Source: a virus. Taken from it: a DNA stretch of 26,412 nucleotides. The stretch covers positions 1 through 26,412 of IMG/VR virus record IMGVR_UViG_3300018040_000017; one strand, 5' to 3'. This document shows, in pieces, positions 438-25,414 of the stretch. The notes beneath the pieces were generated by a model. The model saw only the letters and a list, made by a program, of their open reading frames with translations. It was not told the origin of the DNA and ran no database searches. The first letter of the stretch is position 1, and every line of letters begins with the position of its first letter. Both the position numbers and the translations under genes were made by a program.

Positions 438-1106
438 TTACTTTTTTAATTTATTATAGGCATTCAGAACTTCTTCTGTGAGATATTCCCTGCAAATATC
501 TGACGATTTCTTCAAGGAGTTTATTCGAGCAGCAGCATCAGCATCAGCATAAGCATAAGCAGCAGCAGCAGCAACATCAGCAGCAGCAGCATCAGCATCA
601 GCATCAGCAGCAGCAGCAGCAGCATCAGCATAAGCATAAACAGCAGCAGCAGCATAAGCAGCAGCAGCAGCAGCAGCAGCAGCATAAGCAGCAGCAGCAT
701 CAGCATCAGCATAAGCATAAGCAGCAGCATCAGCAGCAGCAGCATAAGCATAAGCAGCAGCAGCATCAGCATCAGCATAAGCATAAGCAGCAGCAGCATC
801 AGCATAAGCAGCAGCAGCAGCAGCAACATTTAATTCCTCTCTGGTTATCTCACCATTTACATATCTCAAACAAGCTACTAATGCATCTTTACTTCTCTGA
901 TCTTTCATCAGATGTTCAACTTGTTTGGCACACATGACTTTTGCTAATGTTAGTTTTTTATCATCAACATTAAGTCTTTTCGCTATCCAGAGCATCCAGT
1001 CTCCTCTTTCACAGTTCTGCCATGCTGAAAGAGCAGATTCTTGAGTCTTCACATACTCAATAGCTTCATTACAAGCATTTAATTTTTCAAGTTTGTCTGT
1101 TTTCAT
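438..1106 (-). CDS. Imm-5-like alanine-rich protein, copy 2
   Basis: This complete 222-residue protein starts at ATG 1106 and ends with TAA. Residues 1-94 form the conserved head, with CERGDWMLWIAKRL at 32-45 and HLMKDQRSKDA at 65-75. Residues 95-193 are almost only Ala, Tyr and Asp with two Val. Residues 194-222 are a charged tail with ICREYLTEEV. It is a tandem paralogue of the gene just downstream, whose Ala tract is about three times shorter, so tract length seems free to change. The Imm-5-like assignment rests on the RGDWMLW motif plus Ala-rich body and ICREYLT tail, recalled from phage immunity-like proteins. An HNH-like nuclease lies directly upstream, 19 bases away. Whether the protein binds or inhibits that nuclease is speculation. 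Confidence 0.85.
   Translation of the reverse strand: MKTDKLEKLNACNEAIEYVKTQESALSAWQNCERGDWMLWIAKRLNVDDKKLTLAKVMCAKQVEHLMKDQRSKDALVACLRYVNGEITREELNVAAAAAAYADAAAAYAYADADAAAAYAYAAAADAAAYAYADADAAAAYAAAAAAAAAYAAAAVYAYADAAAAAADADADAAAADVAAAAAYAYADADAAARINSLKKSSDICREYLTEEVLNAYNKLKK
528..824 (-). repeat. Triplet tract coding Ala/Tyr/Asp, long version
   Basis: Ninety-nine consecutive codons are GCT, GAT or TAT, apart from two GTT codons, so each differs from GCT by one or two bases and the third base is always T. A higher-order unit coding AYAYADADAA occurs three times (residues 108-117, 130-139 and 184-193). This suggests expansion by slippage or unequal recombination on top of point changes. Confidence 0.9.
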
Positions 1107-19160: not shown

Positions 19161-22136
19161 TTAAACATTTCTTTCTGATGGTGTTGAAAAGATGACTACC
19201 GAATCAATCCTTACCTTATCCGTATGTTCCTCGGTATGGAACTTGAGATAACAATACCTTCCTCTCATGTCCCTACCGTTTAACTTGGCATCAAAGACAC
19301 TTGAGAAGACTCCCGGGGTGTTAATGTCTTTCATTATCTGTCCGAAATAAACTCCCTCCCTCTGCTCAAAGACAGGTATATTTGTCTGCATGAGCTGATG
19401 GCTCTCTGCCACCTGTTGAGGTATATAGACATATTCATCAAGGCTCTCCAATAGATGATCCGTAAATAATCCTACTGCGTTAAATACCTTATTCTTCTGC
19501 GGTTCTATATTAGATACCACTTCCAGTTCGGCATCTGTCGGTATGCCTGACCATGATAAGTAATCCTGTCCTTCGTCACTATTCATAACCCATAATGTCT
19601 GATGATATAAATGTGCGAAGAAATTTCCTAAATGAACATAGCTTTCCGTTATTTGATCTATCTCGGAGACAAACCTGCCCGTGGCTTCGCTGAATATTAT
19701 CCCCTTGACATTCCCATTCATATTGAATGTGATCCATACCTCTTCATGCTCATTGTTTATCCCTATGCGCACCTGAAGAATGCTTGCCCCTCCCGATGAT
19801 CTTATCCATATAAGGAGGTCTTTGAACCACCTCGACATCCTGTATTCCGGTCCTGATAATACTTTCTGACCATTGGGATCTGACCGTATAAGCATTCCTT
19901 CATTGCAGTCATAGTAATATAAGTTGCGGTTATTGGCTACTATGCTATCGGGATGCTGACAGCCATAGTTATCATCCATGGGACGCATCACCCCTAAAAA
20001 CGCATCTGTAAGCGTAAATTGAGACGTTCCATCGGGATTAAAGGTCTGTACCCTGTTTACATAGATGCTCGTCTCCTTGTGCTCCTGAATGACTTTTAAG
20101 ACATATCCTACCTCTCTCAATCCTGTTATTATCCCGTCTTTTTCCGGAAGGTCACGGAAATCCACATCAACAAAATGGGCAATATTATTAGTTGTGGTGC
20201 CGGTTAATAGGAATCCTCCGTTACGAATCCTCTCATCCAACTGAACCTGTTTTAATGTGAGGTCATATATGAAGGGGAACCCGCATGATGTCAGTTTGTT
20301 GTCAATGACCTGACCTACCCACCAGTCACTCGGGAATATGCTTTCTGCCCAGAATGGCTGAACACTGCCCGTATTAACACCTCCTGCAAAACTATAGTTA
20401 AGACGTGAGAACTTCCAGCAGTCATTGGCAGTATTATAGACTTGTGCGGGCGTTACTAATACCCCCGCAGCATTGAATACCTGATTTACATTTCCTGTAT
20501 GATATAAGTTGCCATTACTGTCTGTGGCTATATCAAATACCATACCGCAACCATAAGCTATCACCTGTCCTAATCCTTTCTTTGGACGATAGAGTTCTAC
20601 GATTACGTTCATGGGTGAAGGGAAATCCACTCCCGCTACATGTGCAGTAAAGATAATCGAATTGCCCGAATAAGTAAGGTCGATGCCAAGTGCTGATAAT
20701 GCCGATATGTTCCCGGCAGTGGTGGCGAAGTTCTTTGCTGTCTGCGCCAATCCTGATGCATCCCATGTAACCGTTGCCTCATACGTCCCACAGCATATCG
20801 TTGCCGTTCCAGTTGTTCCTGTAAGTGTTAGCGTATCAACCCTTGCAGTAGGGGTGGCAGGATCATTGGGTGTTGTATGAACTACCGTTCCTGATAAGTC
20901 ACCCGTAAGATTAGTTATTGCCGTTGTCCCGAGGTCGAGATCGTGCGGATGGCTCTTTGCCTGAAAGATAAGATAATCACCGGTTGTGACACTGCCGTCT
21001 TCCGTGCTTGTACCCTCCACTTCATAATCATAAAGGATGGAATATTTCGTAATTACACCTGTACCTGCATTTATCGTGCCAATAAGCCTTATCCTGTCCC
21101 CTAACTGCCATACATAAGCACCTGTCTGCCATCTGTTATTTTGAAGATACGTCCATGCAAAAGTATCATTGACATCAAGAGAATACCTATCCACACCATA
21201 ATTAAGATGCCACACTCCGCTCTCCCTTATCTGCATGAAATAATCCATTGAGTTATTGCCAAAATAGACTATCTCGTATGTCTTTGCCCATGAAGGAGGC
21301 TGATGGCTTATACTGAATGTGAGATTGACAATAGAACTGAGAAGGATGCTTGCTCCATTAGGCTCAGTATAAAATGGTATATAGACCGCATCAAAAGGCA
21401 TCACTGAACACTGTCTCCCTGACCGATCTTTATATACTATCCCGAAGCTATGCGATGATCCGCATTTAAGGTCGGGATATTTATTTGCAAAGCCATAGCG
21501 TAAATAATAGGCACTGTAAGTAAATCCCGAATAGACCGTATTGACATCTCCTGCCACCCATTTCGGTTCACATCCGTATTGTGCGTTTTCCGGGTACATC
21601 AAAATCTGATTTGGCACTGCCGTTGTTTGTAAGACAAAGCCATTTGTTGTCATACTGGCTATGAGTCCATTCTTTAAATCCAACCCCACATCCCCCGCCT
21701 TGACTTCATACGATGCTGTCCTGCTTGTGATTCCTTTGGATGGACATGCTATCGTCACATAATACCAATCATTTGCTATGGGATAATCAGGCAGTGTAAG
21801 TATTAAGAGTCCATAGACGGTTCTCTCTGTCGTATTTGATGATGGATTTGACCAATAATCAGTATGATCCATGAAAGGTATTATGGGAAGATTAGTCTGT
21901 CCCCCTGCCGCAGATACATCCTGATATGTTATTGCAGATGTTATATTGGGCTGTATGACATCCTCTCCTTCAGTTATCTGTCCAAACACAAGGGCATTGC
22001 CTCCCACTACCTCCATACGACCTGCCTTAATAGGTATATAGGTAAAGGGTTCAGCCATGATGTTCACATCCATGACTGCCGATACCTTGTCGTTATAGAA
22101 GGTACGAATAATGTCCGTGTTGTTTGGATATATCAT
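19161..22136 (-). CDS. Large tail (stabilization/hub-like) protein, C-terminal segment
   Basis: A 991-residue structural protein. Residues 222-255 (KCGSSHSFGIVYKDRSGRQC, then MPFDAVYIP) and 276-300 (SISHQPPSWAKTYEIVYFGN) match the middle of the long tail protein of crAss-like and related Bacteroidetes phages, as I recall it. So do GLREVGYVLKVIQEHKETSI (672-691), YGCQHPDSIVANNRNLYYYD (724-743) and SRWFKDLLIW (768-777). Residues about 431-510 (DTLTLTGTTGTATICCGTYE, then IIFTAHVAGVDFPSP) look like an inserted Ig-like or decoration domain of a kind seen in many phages. It appears to be the C-terminal part of a system begun by the two larger upstream tail genes. It lies 1 base past the 145-residue structural gene. 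Confidence 0.75.
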   Translation of the reverse strand: MIYPNNTDIIRTFYNDKVSAVMDVNIMAEPFTYIPIKAGRMEVVGGNALVFGQITEGEDVIQPNITSAITYQDVSAAGGQTNLPIIPFMDHTDYWSNPSSNTTERTVYGLLILTLPDYPIANDWYYVTIACPSKGITSRTASYEVKAGDVGLDLKNGLIASMTTNGFVLQTTAVPNQILMYPENAQYGCEPKWVAGDVNTVYSGFTYSAYYLRYGFANKYPDLKCGSSHSFGIVYKDRSGRQCSVMPFDAVYIPFYTEPNGASILLSSIVNLTFSISHQPPSWAKTYEIVYFGNNSMDYFMQIRESGVWHLNYGVDRYSLDVNDTFAWTYLQNNRWQTGAYVWQLGDRIRLIGTINAGTGVITKYSILYDYEVEGTSTEDGSVTTGDYLIFQAKSHPHDLDLGTTAITNLTGDLSGTVVHTTPNDPATPTARVDTLTLTGTTGTATICCGTYEATVTWDASGLAQTAKNFATTAGNISALSALGIDLTYSGNSIIFTAHVAGVDFPSPMNVIVELYRPKKGLGQVIAYGCGMVFDIATDSNGNLYHTGNVNQVFNAAGVLVTPAQVYNTANDCWKFSRLNYSFAGGVNTGSVQPFWAESIFPSDWWVGQVIDNKLTSCGFPFIYDLTLKQVQLDERIRNGGFLLTGTTTNNIAHFVDVDFRDLPEKDGIITGLREVGYVLKVIQEHKETSIYVNRVQTFNPDGTSQFTLTDAFLGVMRPMDDNYGCQHPDSIVANNRNLYYYDCNEGMLIRSDPNGQKVLSGPEYRMSRWFKDLLIWIRSSGGASILQVRIGINNEHEEVWITFNMNGNVKGIIFSEATGRFVSEIDQITESYVHLGNFFAHLYHQTLWVMNSDEGQDYLSWSGIPTDAELEVVSNIEPQKNKVFNAVGLFTDHLLESLDEYVYIPQQVAESHQLMQTNIPVFEQREGVYFGQIMKDINTPGVFSSVFDAKLNGRDMRGRYCYLKFHTEEHTDKVRIDSVVIFSTPSERNV

Positions 22137-22137
22137 A

Positions 22138-22575
22138 TTAAGTTAAATAGATTATCCCAAGGGCATTCCACTGAATGAGGCTTGTGCCGTTATTCACTAC
22201 CTGGTCTGTAAGGAAGTCAATGATTGCCCGTAGCTTATATGTTGACTGTCCTGTGCCTCCTGTAGTCGTATAAAAAGCCCCATAGCGATAGTCAATGCTC
22301 GAATTGGGGCCTATCGAGACATCTTGCGCATCGAGAAAATAGTTATTGCCATCGGCATTGGATGACAGACCGTTCATCAATATCCCTCCTGCCTTATAAG
22401 CGCCCGGAGTACCGCTATCGGTGATCTCATAAGCCACCACATCCGAGACATAATGTTGTGTTGCCGGATTAGGGGTGAATGAGTTATTAAGGAGCATGAG
22501 ATACCATACTTCACCCGTCCACCCATCGGTGATCTCTTTCTTTACGTATTTCGGAATACAACTTAGATTTGCCAT
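22138..22575 (-). CDS. Small phage structural protein (decoration/minor tail-like)
   Basis: A 145-residue protein from ATG 22575 behind an A/T-rich leader. It has VWYLMLLNNSFTPNPATQHY, VSDVVAYEI, YKAGGILMNG, a SSIDYRYGAFY strand and ends with TSLIQWNALGIIYL. This matches a widespread phage family of about 130-150 residues, whose members read ALLNNSYTPN, then TAGG, RYAV and IQWN near the end. They are usually annotated as structural or hypothetical. It sits between the two halves of the tail protein system, so it is probably in the tail. The exact role is unknown. Confidence 0.75.
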   Translation of the reverse strand: MANLSCIPKYVKKEITDGWTGEVWYLMLLNNSFTPNPATQHYVSDVVAYEITDSGTPGAYKAGGILMNGLSSNADGNNYFLDAQDVSIGPNSSIDYRYGAFYTTTGGTGQSTYKLRAIIDFLTDQVVNNGTSLIQWNALGIIYLT

Positions 22576-22586
22576 AATATTATTTT

Positions 22587-24326
22587 TTAAACTAAAGGTC
22601 CTACATAAACTATGATATAATCTCCGGAGGCAACTTGCCGTGACATCGTTACCGTCCTGCTATTTGAATACTGATTTAATAAGTCTGAAAGCGTTCCCGT
22701 CCCTGATGCTACTCCATTGGCATATATATAATAGGGCGTGCTGAATACTACCTTTGGACCGTAAAGAACATCATCAGGAGTGAATGTAACCGTTATGCTC
22801 GCTGATCCCATCGTGGCTACTCCCGAAGTATTGGAAACGGAAATCAAGTCAGGACTTCCTGCCTCTATGACAAGGGTGGGTGGTATGACCGGTGCTAACT
22901 GAGATACTGCTATATAAATGGTATCCCCCAACGAATCCTTCAAGACAACCGTCCCGCTTCTTAAAACCCCTGTATTTGCCGATGCGGGAGTAATCATAAG
23001 CGTCTGTGCGTTGTATATCGTATCCCCTGCCTTCATTGATCCATGGTAAGGCACATTGGATATTGTTATCCATGATGGGAATGACACAAGCGTTCCCTCT
23101 GTCGTGCCTCCTACTATCGTCAATACCGTCTCTGTCCCGCTATAAGAACTATCCGGCCACTGCATAGAATTGACACTTGCAGATATATAGGCATTTGTCA
23201 CTCCTATTGATGGGAAGCTGAATGCGAATCCCGTATCTCCCGGGTTGACTATTGTGCCATTCTCCATATCCGGCTGTGGGAATGAGAAGCTGATTGTCAA
23301 TACCGGAGCTATGATATTCTGAGATATGGCACCAGCATTCTCCTGTTCGCTGAACTTATCAATGGTGTCAATAAGAAACCATTTGGAGGGATCGCTACTG
23401 CTCCGTACCACCACCTCTATCTGCCTCACCTCCTCGCCTCCTGTATTAAGCGTTATCTCCAAGGCATTATTAAGCGATGTCATCTCATTGGCAAGCCCTG
23501 TAGCCACCTCTTCCTCGCCATTAGGCATGGCAAGTATGCTCGCAGGAGAGAACGTGCTTCTTCTCCAATCCATATAGACATACCTGTAGGCTATCTGAAA
23601 GAGCGTCTGCCTGAGGTTATTCACCTGTCGGTTGTTATCTGAGAAATACTGCACTACCGGAGGATGCTTGGGAGGCATGGCTTCAAAGTAGAAATTCTCA
23701 ATATTCATCGAATAATAAGCGTCTTCTATCATGCAGAGTGGCGGTATGCCCCAATGCGTCCCGTCATCCGTCCGTGGTTCATATCCTACATTATTATAAA
23801 CAAGGCTCTTATAGAAGTAATTGCCATTGGACACAATCTGTCCAAGGCTATAACTACTTGTCGCATTCCATTCCGTAGTATTCGGGAAAGCGCCATAGCC
23901 TATCTTATATGTAAACGAGTTCTTTGCCCTCTTAATATCCATCTGGTATATGGGGTTCACATTATCCGTCCATACAAGCCTCCCAAATACCACCTTCGGA
24001 TTGTAAATCTTATGATTCGGGTCAAAGCCTATGTTATTATACTTGTCGTAATAGACTACCGACTGCACCCTGTTATCAACATTTATCTCAATGATCCAGG
24101 CAGAGCCGAAATAAGTATCAATATAAAAGACATATATGCACCGTGTAAGGGGATCAACACAGTTACCGCACAGAAGGACATTGGTTATATAAGATGGCTG
24201 TAATGGGTTGACGGTACCAATATCTTTAAGAAGCCGTACAGACAGACAGTCATTCTTTGGGGCAAAATCTATCGTTGCCTGTGCGGTGTTATATCCAAGA
24301 GATAATATCTTAGCTGAATTGCTCAT
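22587..24326 (-). CDS. Tail protein, middle segment, with sugar-binding-type and BACON-like domains
   Basis: A 579-residue protein that starts by a 4-base ATGA overlap with the preceding gene. Residues 1-140 are beta-propeller-like (IYVFYIDTYFGSAWIIEINV, VVFGRLVWTDNVNPIYQMD). Residues about 150-196 (EWNATSSYSLGQIVSNGNYF, then HWGI) match a carbohydrate-binding module of the CBM5/12 chitin-binding type. NNLRQTLFQIAYRYVYMDWR (236-255) with STFSPAS resumes the conserved tail protein. Residues about 413-480 (SFPSWITISN, then NTGVLRSGTVVLKD and IAVSQLAP) fit a BACON-like domain. The C-terminal 100 residues form a further beta domain. It probably acts in tail assembly and surface or sugar binding. 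Confidence 0.72.
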   Translation of the reverse strand: MSNSAKILSLGYNTAQATIDFAPKNDCLSVRLLKDIGTVNPLQPSYITNVLLCGNCVDPLTRCIYVFYIDTYFGSAWIIEINVDNRVQSVVYYDKYNNIGFDPNHKIYNPKVVFGRLVWTDNVNPIYQMDIKRAKNSFTYKIGYGAFPNTTEWNATSSYSLGQIVSNGNYFYKSLVYNNVGYEPRTDDGTHWGIPPLCMIEDAYYSMNIENFYFEAMPPKHPPVVQYFSDNNRQVNNLRQTLFQIAYRYVYMDWRRSTFSPASILAMPNGEEEVATGLANEMTSLNNALEITLNTGGEEVRQIEVVVRSSSDPSKWFLIDTIDKFSEQENAGAISQNIIAPVLTISFSFPQPDMENGTIVNPGDTGFAFSFPSIGVTNAYISASVNSMQWPDSSYSGTETVLTIVGGTTEGTLVSFPSWITISNVPYHGSMKAGDTIYNAQTLMITPASANTGVLRSGTVVLKDSLGDTIYIAVSQLAPVIPPTLVIEAGSPDLISVSNTSGVATMGSASITVTFTPDDVLYGPKVVFSTPYYIYANGVASGTGTLSDLLNQYSNSRTVTMSRQVASGDYIIVYVGPLV

Positions 24327-25414
24327 ATTATCAAATTAACACAAATCCGTGCCGCACTTGATGTCTCCCCTGCTTGCCCTATTATCGCTGTCGTATTTGC
24401 CGATCCGGTACCTACGGCTGTCCCTGTTGTTCCTATTGCGACATTTGTTATATTGCTCCATGCAGATGATACTGACTGGTCTGATGGTGCGCATTCAAGA
24501 TACTGGTTGCCATTTTTATAGAATATATATCCTCCTGCTGGTCCAACATCCTGTAAGTCATAACTGAATATTGAGGTGAATGAATGTATTGCCCTTACAT
24601 AAAACTGATAACTCTTGGTCTGTACACTCTGGGCTCCCGAACCGAAATTCTGATACCATGCTGAGATGGCTACAGATTCCGAAGAAGTCCAATATGTGTT
24701 TTGTGAAAAGTTTCCAAGCCCATTCAGATAAAGGACGGAATACATAAGAGCTAATTCATCTTTTGATGGCAGGTACCAATTATTAAAAGTGTTTTCATCT
24801 TTTAGCCAAAATAATCCATTTGCTCCAAGTAGTTCATATATTGTATCATATATCCCTCCCGGCAATGCCCTGAAGCCATAGTTGTCATCGGCTCCTGTAT
24901 TAGGATCATTCCAGTGGTCATCGCCTACCTCTTTCAGATGTCCTCCGGCTATCATCTGTCCTCCAAGGAATGTCAATAGAATGTTAATCTCCGCCTCTGT
25001 AGGCACATGCCATCCCTCCGGACAGAAATCCACTGACATGATCTGATTCCATGAGTAAAGACCTCCGTATATAGCCCTGTTGTCTTCATCGTCATTATAG
25101 ACTCTGCTCCCGGGATAAGCGTTATCCCAGTTCCTCTTCATCCACGTCTGAGATCCAATCGTCACTTCTTCCCAGCCCTCGTATAGGAATGCGCCACCGA
25201 TAGCTGCACCGTAATATGTTATCTCTGCGCTTACATTTAACAAAACAGGGACTTCTCCCTGTAGCGTCTCAAGAACCCCTGCCCCATGTTGTTCACTGCT
25301 ACTTGCGGTGCGCACATTTTTGGCAAAGGTAAACTCCCCCTCCTGAAGGAACTGAGGGTCTTGATCACTGTTTAGACCTAAAAATAATTTCTTTATATCT
25401 CTAAGAGTTGCCAT
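24323..25414 (-). CDS. Tail protein with mosaic C-type-lectin-like (FISUMP/Lcl) domain
   Basis: A 363-residue protein from ATG 25414. Residues 1-55 (RDIKKLFLGLNSDQDPQFLQ, EGEFTFAKNVR, GVLETLQGEVPVLL) resemble the start of the long tail stabilization protein. Residues about 80-187 are FISUMP-like (IGSQTWMKRNW, YSWNQIM, CPEGWHVPTEAEI, GFRALPGG). Residues about 205-278 look like the second half of a DUF1566/Lcl lectin domain (WYLPSKDELALMY, YWTSSES, AWYQNF, FYVRAIHSF), and residues 290-361 like its first half (GPAGGYIFYKNG, APSDQSVSSAW, GTAVGTGSANTTAI, AARICVNL). The halves are in reversed order. The protein probably binds host surface structures. It may be a variable protein, but no reverse transcriptase is in the window. 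Confidence 0.72.
   Translation of the reverse strand: MATLRDIKKLFLGLNSDQDPQFLQEGEFTFAKNVRTASSSEQHGAGVLETLQGEVPVLLNVSAEITYYGAAIGGAFLYEGWEEVTIGSQTWMKRNWDNAYPGSRVYNDDEDNRAIYGGLYSWNQIMSVDFCPEGWHVPTEAEINILLTFLGGQMIAGGHLKEVGDDHWNDPNTGADDNYGFRALPGGIYDTIYELLGANGLFWLKDENTFNNWYLPSKDELALMYSVLYLNGLGNFSQNTYWTSSESVAISAWYQNFGSGAQSVQTKSYQFYVRAIHSFTSIFSYDLQDVGPAGGYIFYKNGNQYLECAPSDQSVSSAWSNITNVAIGTTGTAVGTGSANTTAIIGQAGETSSAARICVNLII

What the first reader, a model, noticed from the sequence alone, without database searches (positions are those of the whole stretch)
24323..25177. Mosaic lectin-like domain with its two halves in reversed order
The protein joins the first part of a FISUMP domain to the second half of a DUF1566/Lcl lectin domain (WYLPSKDEL to VRAIHSF), followed by that domain's first half (GPAGGYIF to AARICVNL) at the very end. 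In members I recall, GPAGGYIF comes before WYLPSKDEL. So this is a circular permutation, or a new repeat unit cut off by the gene end. It seems an undescribed chimera of two lectin-type families in a phage tail.
Basis: partly seen in the sequence, partly recalled or inferred. Interest (0 to 1): 0.65.

Follow-up and report, generated by a model that had tools for sequence, protein, structure and literature searches.

The report
Circularly permuted, promiscuous phage lectin-fold domain
A lectin-fold domain in a phage tail protein really is encoded with its two halves swapped; the same swapped version turns up, spliced in frame into many different proteins of other phages, and is predicted to fold normally, so it looks like a cut-and-joined binding module that phages reuse.

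Summary
In the 363-aa ORF 25414..24323 (-), residues 211-279 match the second half, and residues 285-363 the first half, of a DUF1566/Lcl_C domain (phrog_4245 positions 506-580, then 423-501). It is neither an assembly error (five contigs, 100% identical) nor a truncated repeat. I found 35 other distinct copies with the same order, 33 of them in viral contigs. All are opened at the two-residue NG/GG turn that joins the halves in ordinary Lcl domains, with the old ends joined by a 5-7 residue linker. Among 395 Bacteroidota genomes only the centre genome had the swapped order, although 87 had Lcl-like matches. Trees fit one origin. AlphaFold2 closes the halves into one confident domain (pLDDT 87-99). 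The permuted domain lies in frame inside unrelated proteins: four places in FISUMP domains, a ~125-aa phage protein with two uninterrupted relatives, SWM- and PKD-like repeats; or at C-termini. FISUMP and Lcl are separate domains here; relatives without Lcl end their FISUMP at the same point. Best reading: a circularly permuted C-type-lectin-like module used as a receptor-binding insert on phage tails. Binding is inferred, not shown. How it moves is unknown.

The parts
24323..25414 (-). ORF1, 363 aa: crAss-muzzle-like N-terminus + FISUMP (C-terminally short) + circularly permuted Lcl domain
25235..25414 (-). residues 1-60, N-terminal piece resembling the crAss muzzle family (phrog_14478 positions 2-44, weak, E 0.25); conserved in relatives L056/L308-L311
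24785..25165 (-). residues 84-210, FISUMP (PF09603) positions 1-158 of 187; last strands absent, as in relatives without an Lcl domain
24578..24784 (-). residues 211-279, second half of the Lcl domain (NNWYLPSKDEL..VRAIHSF), placed first
24563..24577 (-). residues 280-284 (TSIFS), linker that joins the old C-terminus to the old N-terminus; 5-7 residues in all 36 copies
24326..24562 (-). residues 285-363, first half of the Lcl domain (YDLQDVGPAGGYIF..AARICVNLII), placed last; TGA stop 24325-24323
22587..24326 (-). ORF2, 579 aa, next piece of the muzzle-like protein (phrog_14478 164-281), ATG overlaps ORF1's stop codon
19161..22136 (-). ORF4, 991 aa, third muzzle-like piece (phrog_14478 966-1147; crAss_MUZ_C 7e-4, below cut-off)

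Best explanation
The C-terminal 153 residues of ORF1 are one complete, circularly permuted Lcl_C/DUF1566 C-type-lectin-like domain ('cpLcl'). Compared with the ordinary domain, the chain is opened in the two-residue NG/GG turn between the first-half helix (SAAKLCDDL) and the WFLPSKDEL segment, and the old ends (VRACRAF and YALRDVGPAGG) are joined by a 5-7 residue linker (shown by sequence). The halves close into one domain (predicted). The permuted form arose essentially once and spread among phages as a promiscuous module, spliced in frame into loops of other domains or added to C-termini (shown by comparison; how it moves is unknown). In this phage it follows a FISUMP domain on a piece of the split crAss-like muzzle protein at the tail tip, where it most likely binds a cell-surface ligand of the host (inferred from fold, location and the variable second half).
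For: Complementary halves on phrog_4245, 506-580 then 423-501 of 583. 36 distinct copies with the order h2-h1 and a 5-7 residue gap (18x6, 17x5, 1x7), against 123 ordinary copies with mostly a 3-residue NGY/GGY/NGF/GGF join. At the cut only the aromatic residue of that join is kept (Y/F at -1 in 26 of 36); residues -2 to -6 are unconserved. AlphaFold2 on full ORF1: residues 211-363 at block pLDDT 87-99, everything before it low. Foldseek, which keeps sequence order, finds the Legionella Lcl C-terminal domain 8q4e as best hit but aligns only 55 columns at 1.5 A, as expected for a permutation. One origin: AU test p 0.93 for all 36 as one clade; SH-aLRT 94 for one separating branch when long-branch rows are left out. 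Uninterrupted counterparts: L052 vs L051; L048/L064/L243/L058 vs L056's second FISUMP; L063 vs L303/L304; L056 vs L309-L311. The nested FISUMP(cpLcl) protein L048 models as two confident parts with weakly modelled linkers. All full-length permuted copies listed are in open frames without stops.
Against: No experimental structure or binding data. The fold is a monomer prediction from 36 related permuted sequences; a domain-swapped oligomer was not modelled (Legionella Lcl is a trimer, PMC11162425). No non-sequential superposition of the model on 8q4e was possible. Receptor binding is inferred. Tree support is limited by 149 columns; in the first tree L071 and L120 fell outside the main group, so a second, independent permutation is not excluded. 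In the full-ORF1 model the FISUMP part is poorly predicted.
Confidence: 0.85

Rival explanations
1. Truncated tandem repeat: the gene once held h1-h2-h1-h2; the terminal half is the start of a second unit cut off by the gene end and is not part of a folded domain.
For: Ordinary tandem pairs with a 4-residue linker exist (L119 h1 349-426, h2 430-497, h1 502-579, h2 583-650). Arrays h2-h1-h2-h1 exist in L240, L246 and L257. This is a likely route of origin.
Against: 35 other copies end at the same point; 12 continue into other protein for 40 or more residues. The terminal half is the better conserved one (mean entropy 1.33 vs 1.89). The model closes the domain.
Confidence: 0.06
2. Assembly artefact or collapsed repeat.
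For: Metagenomic contig; the window genome is known only from metagenomes.
Against: Five contigs from several datasets agree at 100%; no second Lcl copy in the 66 kb contig; the same order occurs in 35 other domain sequences.
Confidence: 0.01
3. A diversity-generating retroelement (DGR) target whose rearrangement is linked to mutagenic retrohoming.
For: DUF1566 proteins are known DGR targets (PMC8143477, PMC4159848; Bacuni_F1 region with reverse transcriptase); the second half is the variable one.
Against: No reverse transcriptase in 30 of 31 viral contigs with cpLcl, including the window's phage. No template-like repeat in the window genome, nor in the one contig that has a reverse transcriptase.
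Confidence: 0.03
4. FISUMP-Lcl mosaic: the second Lcl half completes the FISUMP, which lacks its last strands, and the terminal half is extra.
For: FISUMP stops at profile position 158 of 187 exactly where Lcl_C starts.
Against: Relatives without an Lcl domain in that gene end the FISUMP at the same point; in L043 a complete FISUMP (3-187 of 187) precedes the same permuted domain; AlphaFold2 gives one confident unit for the two Lcl halves and not for the FISUMP part.
Confidence: 0.05

Closest known systems
Lcl_C / DUF1566 (PF07603); Legionella collagen-like protein C-terminal domain, PDB 8q4e
   Same: Same sequence family and, by prediction, same C-type-lectin-like fold; best Foldseek hit
   Different: Order of the halves is permuted; opened in the NG/GG turn before the WFLPSKDEL segment; old ends joined by a 5-7 residue linker
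FISUMP / Fib_succ_major (PF09603)
   Same: Neighbouring or enclosing domain in many cpLcl proteins, including this one
   Different: A separate domain; the cpLcl sits after it or inside its loops
DUF1566 targets of diversity-generating retroelements (e.g. Bacteroides phage Bacuni_F1)
   Same: Same domain family; variable second half
   Different: Ordinary order, with a reverse transcriptase nearby; none found here
Promiscuous Ig-like domains of phage virion proteins (from general knowledge)
   Same: A domain added to or inserted in unrelated virion proteins
   Different: Different fold; no fixed circular permutation known to me
phi-crAss001 muzzle protein gp44 (PMC10172136)
   Same: ORF1/2/4 match a muzzle-like family in order; muzzle proteins are reported to vary by insertions
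   Different: Split over separate genes here and carries FISUMP + cpLcl

Membership tests
Lcl_C / DUF1566 (PF07603) | Sequence match above the curated cut-off | tested here: met
   36.0 bits vs 34.9 in ORF1; the permuted relatives scanned fall below it
Lcl_C / DUF1566 (PF07603) | Ordinary order: GPAGG half, NG/GG turn, W[FY]LPS half | tested here: not met
   Order reversed; hence a circularly permuted variant rather than an ordinary member
Lcl_C / DUF1566 (PF07603) | C-type-lectin-like fold as in 8q4e | tested here: inconclusive
   Confident model, partial order-bound match to 8q4e at 1.5 A over 55 columns; no permutation-aware superposition available
Lcl_C / DUF1566 (PF07603) | Glycosaminoglycan binding and trimerisation, as reported for Legionella Lcl (PMC11162425) | not testable with these tools
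   Experiment needed
FISUMP (PF09603) | Full-length profile match | tested here: not met
   Positions 1-158 of 187 only; clear family match (74 bits vs 33.9) but C-terminally short, as in relatives
DGR target protein | Reverse transcriptase and template repeat in the same genome | tested here: not met
crAss-like muzzle protein | Matches in order along the muzzle family | tested here: met
   phrog_14478 2-44 (weak), 164-281, 966-1147 in successive ORFs; PF25729 below cut-off
Receptor-binding protein | Binds host surface | not testable with these tools
   Inferred from fold and position only

The most novel reading that the evidence does not exclude
The ~460-bp cpLcl unit moves as a discrete DNA unit (for instance a circle or an excised tandem-repeat segment) that integrates in frame into other genes, the permutation being the footprint of integration through the NG turn of a circularised ordinary domain: a domain-sized mobile element.
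Probability: 0.1. Interest if true: 0.85.

Novelty: new variant of a known kind. Interest (0 to 1): 0.62.

Why it matters
It is a natural circular permutant of a widespread lectin-like fold that appears to have one origin and yet sits at many unrelated insertion points. That gives a direct way to test whether opening a domain at a surface turn makes it insertion-competent, an old idea about how domains spread. It also marks probable receptor-binding inserts in otherwise unannotated phage tail proteins; annotation by Pfam alone hides the swap, because Lcl_C matches only the second half here.

Tried and rejected
DGR: no RT or template repeat. Assembly error: identical contigs. Recent transposition: the best DNA identity between copies at different loci is 71%, so no recent burst is visible. 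Target-site duplications: not seen consistently; only L052 shows a similar ~9-base flank (ACTCASTGG) on both sides, a single case. Search of annotated phage records for the first half: no match; for the second half only weak matches, 30-38% identity. Papers: none holds both DUF1566 and circular permutation, none combines circular permutation, phage, lectin and domain insertion. The viral structure library gave only partial, order-bound hits.

Full report
WHAT IS THERE. ORF1 (25414..24323, minus strand, 363 aa) has three parts. Residues 1-60 resemble the start of the crAss muzzle family (weak on their own: phrog_14478 2-44, E 0.25). Residues 84-210 match FISUMP (PF09603) positions 1-158 of 187. 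Residues 211-363 hold an Lcl_C/DUF1566-type domain in swapped order: the second half (NNWYLPSKDEL..VRAIHSF, phrog_4245 506-580), a 5-residue linker TSIFS, then the first half (YDLQDVGPAGGYIF..AARICVNLII, phrog_4245 423-501) and a TGA that overlaps the ATG of ORF2. ORF2 and ORF4 match phrog_14478 at 164-281 and 966-1147. So ORF1, ORF2 and ORF4 look like pieces of one split muzzle protein, in order (inference).

NOT AN ARTEFACT. Four further IMG/VR contigs are 100% identical over the shared stretch. The largest, 65,958 bases, matches 26,272 bases of the window with one mismatch; the window bridges its two ends, so the genome is probably circular. No second Lcl copy, template-like repeat or reverse transcriptase was found in it.

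RECURRENCE. A search with the terminal half alone brought phages at 60-75% identity, and eight of these loci have the same swapped order. Two wider viral scans and one scan of genome contigs, sorted with profiles of each half, gave 36 distinct swapped copies, the window's included, against 123 ordinary ones. Thirty-four of the 36 lie in viral contigs and two (L118, L120) in genome contigs. The scans are seeded by patterns and cut at the best 80, so these numbers are not frequencies. As a frequency check, in 395 Bacteroidota genomes only the centre genome gave one full-length match in swapped order (212.6 bits); the other 86 genomes with matches gave shorter ones of 69 bits or less.

THE CUT IS ALWAYS AT THE SAME PLACE. 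Ordinary domains join the halves mostly by three residues, commonest NGY, GGY, NGF, GGF. Swapped ones mostly keep the aromatic residue (Y/F in 26 of 36), then start [ND]DW[FY]LPS, and end C[DN]D[LY]xx. Residues -2 to -6 and those after the end are unconserved. So the chain is opened in the two-residue NG/GG turn. The linker that joins the old ends has 5-7 residues in every copy. This is what a circular permutation needs: almost nothing lost, nothing doubled.

FOLD. AlphaFold2 on full ORF1, with 36 natural sequences, gives block pLDDT 87-99 for residues 211-363 and low values before that. The order of elements is helix 218-231, strands 240-280, then strands 296-318 and helices 337-359. In the Legionella structure the S1-S4 strands come first and the DUF1566 part with H2, H3 and S5-S9 last (PMC11162425), so ours is that order rotated. 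Foldseek, bound to sequence order, has Legionella Lcl 8q4e as top hit but aligns only 55 columns at 1.5 A. I could not run a permutation-aware superposition.

ONE ORIGIN. With halves aligned separately and set side by side, FastTree puts 34 of 36 swapped copies together without any ordinary one (weak support 0.31). A quick IQ-TREE search needed 2 changes (shuffled mean 28.6). Holding all 36 as one clade raised the likelihood, p-AU 0.93; without eight long-branch rows one branch separates the groups, SH-aLRT 94. One origin is therefore well compatible; independent origin of L071 or L120 is not excluded.

A PROMISCUOUS MODULE. The same unit sits in very different surroundings. Inside FISUMP: after '..YADGTAIPNI' (L048, L064, L243, L058; a FISUMP without it in L056); between LYNWYxxKG and IAPAGWHxP (L051, L237); between LKET and THW (L052, while its relative L051, 79-83% DNA identity nearby, lacks it there); and between PGGxF and the LLG motif in L056, a relative of the window gene. 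Inside a ~125-aa phage protein in L063; relatives L303 (56%) and L304 (49%) lack it. Next to or inside SWM-like and PKD-like repeats (L054, L120). At C-termini of several other proteins. The FISUMP with the cpLcl inside it (L048) models as two parts, cpLcl 81-98 and the split FISUMP about 61-91, with both linkers under 50. Copies at different loci share at most 71% DNA identity, so no recent movement is seen.

THE WINDOW GENE AMONG ITS RELATIVES. L308-L312 carry the same N-terminus and a FISUMP that ends at '..LLGxxGLFWLxDE'. What follows differs: permuted Lcl (window), propeller-like repeats (L309), FN3-like repeats with a separate gene of two permuted units (L310), FN3/FISUMP/long repeats (L311), or permuted Lcl inside the FISUMP plus a second FISUMP (L312 = L056). 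So the short FISUMP was not made by the Lcl join, and this place of the muzzle gene is a variable site. (Names of repeats in L308-L311 are from reading the sequence, not from profiles, except the tail-protein PHROGs of L311.)

FUNCTION. [quoted passage not shown] Lcl of Legionella binds glycosaminoglycans (PMC11162425). The second half of the permuted domain is its variable half (entropy 1.89 vs 1.33). I infer that the domain binds a host-surface ligand. The host is probably a Bacteroidota bacterium: terminase relatives are Flavobacterium, Cellulophaga and Maribacter phages at 28-32% in the best rows. None of this is shown by experiment.

ORIGIN OF THE PERMUTATION. Ordinary tandem pairs with a 4-residue linker exist (L119). 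Loss of the first h1 and the last h2 from such a pair would give exactly this form. That is an inference; a circularised intermediate would give the same result.

NOVELTY. Circular permutation and promiscuous domains are both known kinds. A single-origin permutant that is itself promiscuous in phage structural proteins I did not find described (searches; only an open-access library was searched).

Noticed in passing
window 19161-25414 (-): Muzzle-like protein split into three ORFs (1, 2, 4) with a phrog_644-like ORF between 2 and 4; the ORF1/ORF2 split is shared by relatives L309-L312.
   Followed up: partly
L240, L246, L257 (and L046, same contig as L257): Arrays h2-h1-h2-h1: two permuted units whose middle junction restores an ordinary h1-h2 order.
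   Followed up: partly
window 438-1106 (-): Protein with a long low-complexity stretch of Ala/Asp/Tyr repeats (AAAAYAYADADA); related repeats lie next to it in the 66 kb contig.
   Followed up: no
65,958-base contig, 42501-50475 (locus L020, 2501-10475): Run of about a dozen genes that read like glycosyltransferases and sugar or methyltransferase enzymes, large for a 66 kb phage; not checked with profiles.
   Followed up: no
65,958-base contig, 26084-26929 (starts at the window's end): ORF that reads like a GIY-YIG endonuclease between structural genes; not checked with profiles.
   Followed up: no
L375-L377 (contig of L069), RT at contig 36241-36816: Reverse transcriptase in the only viral contig with cpLcl that has one; no template-like repeat matching the cpLcl copies.
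   Followed up: yes
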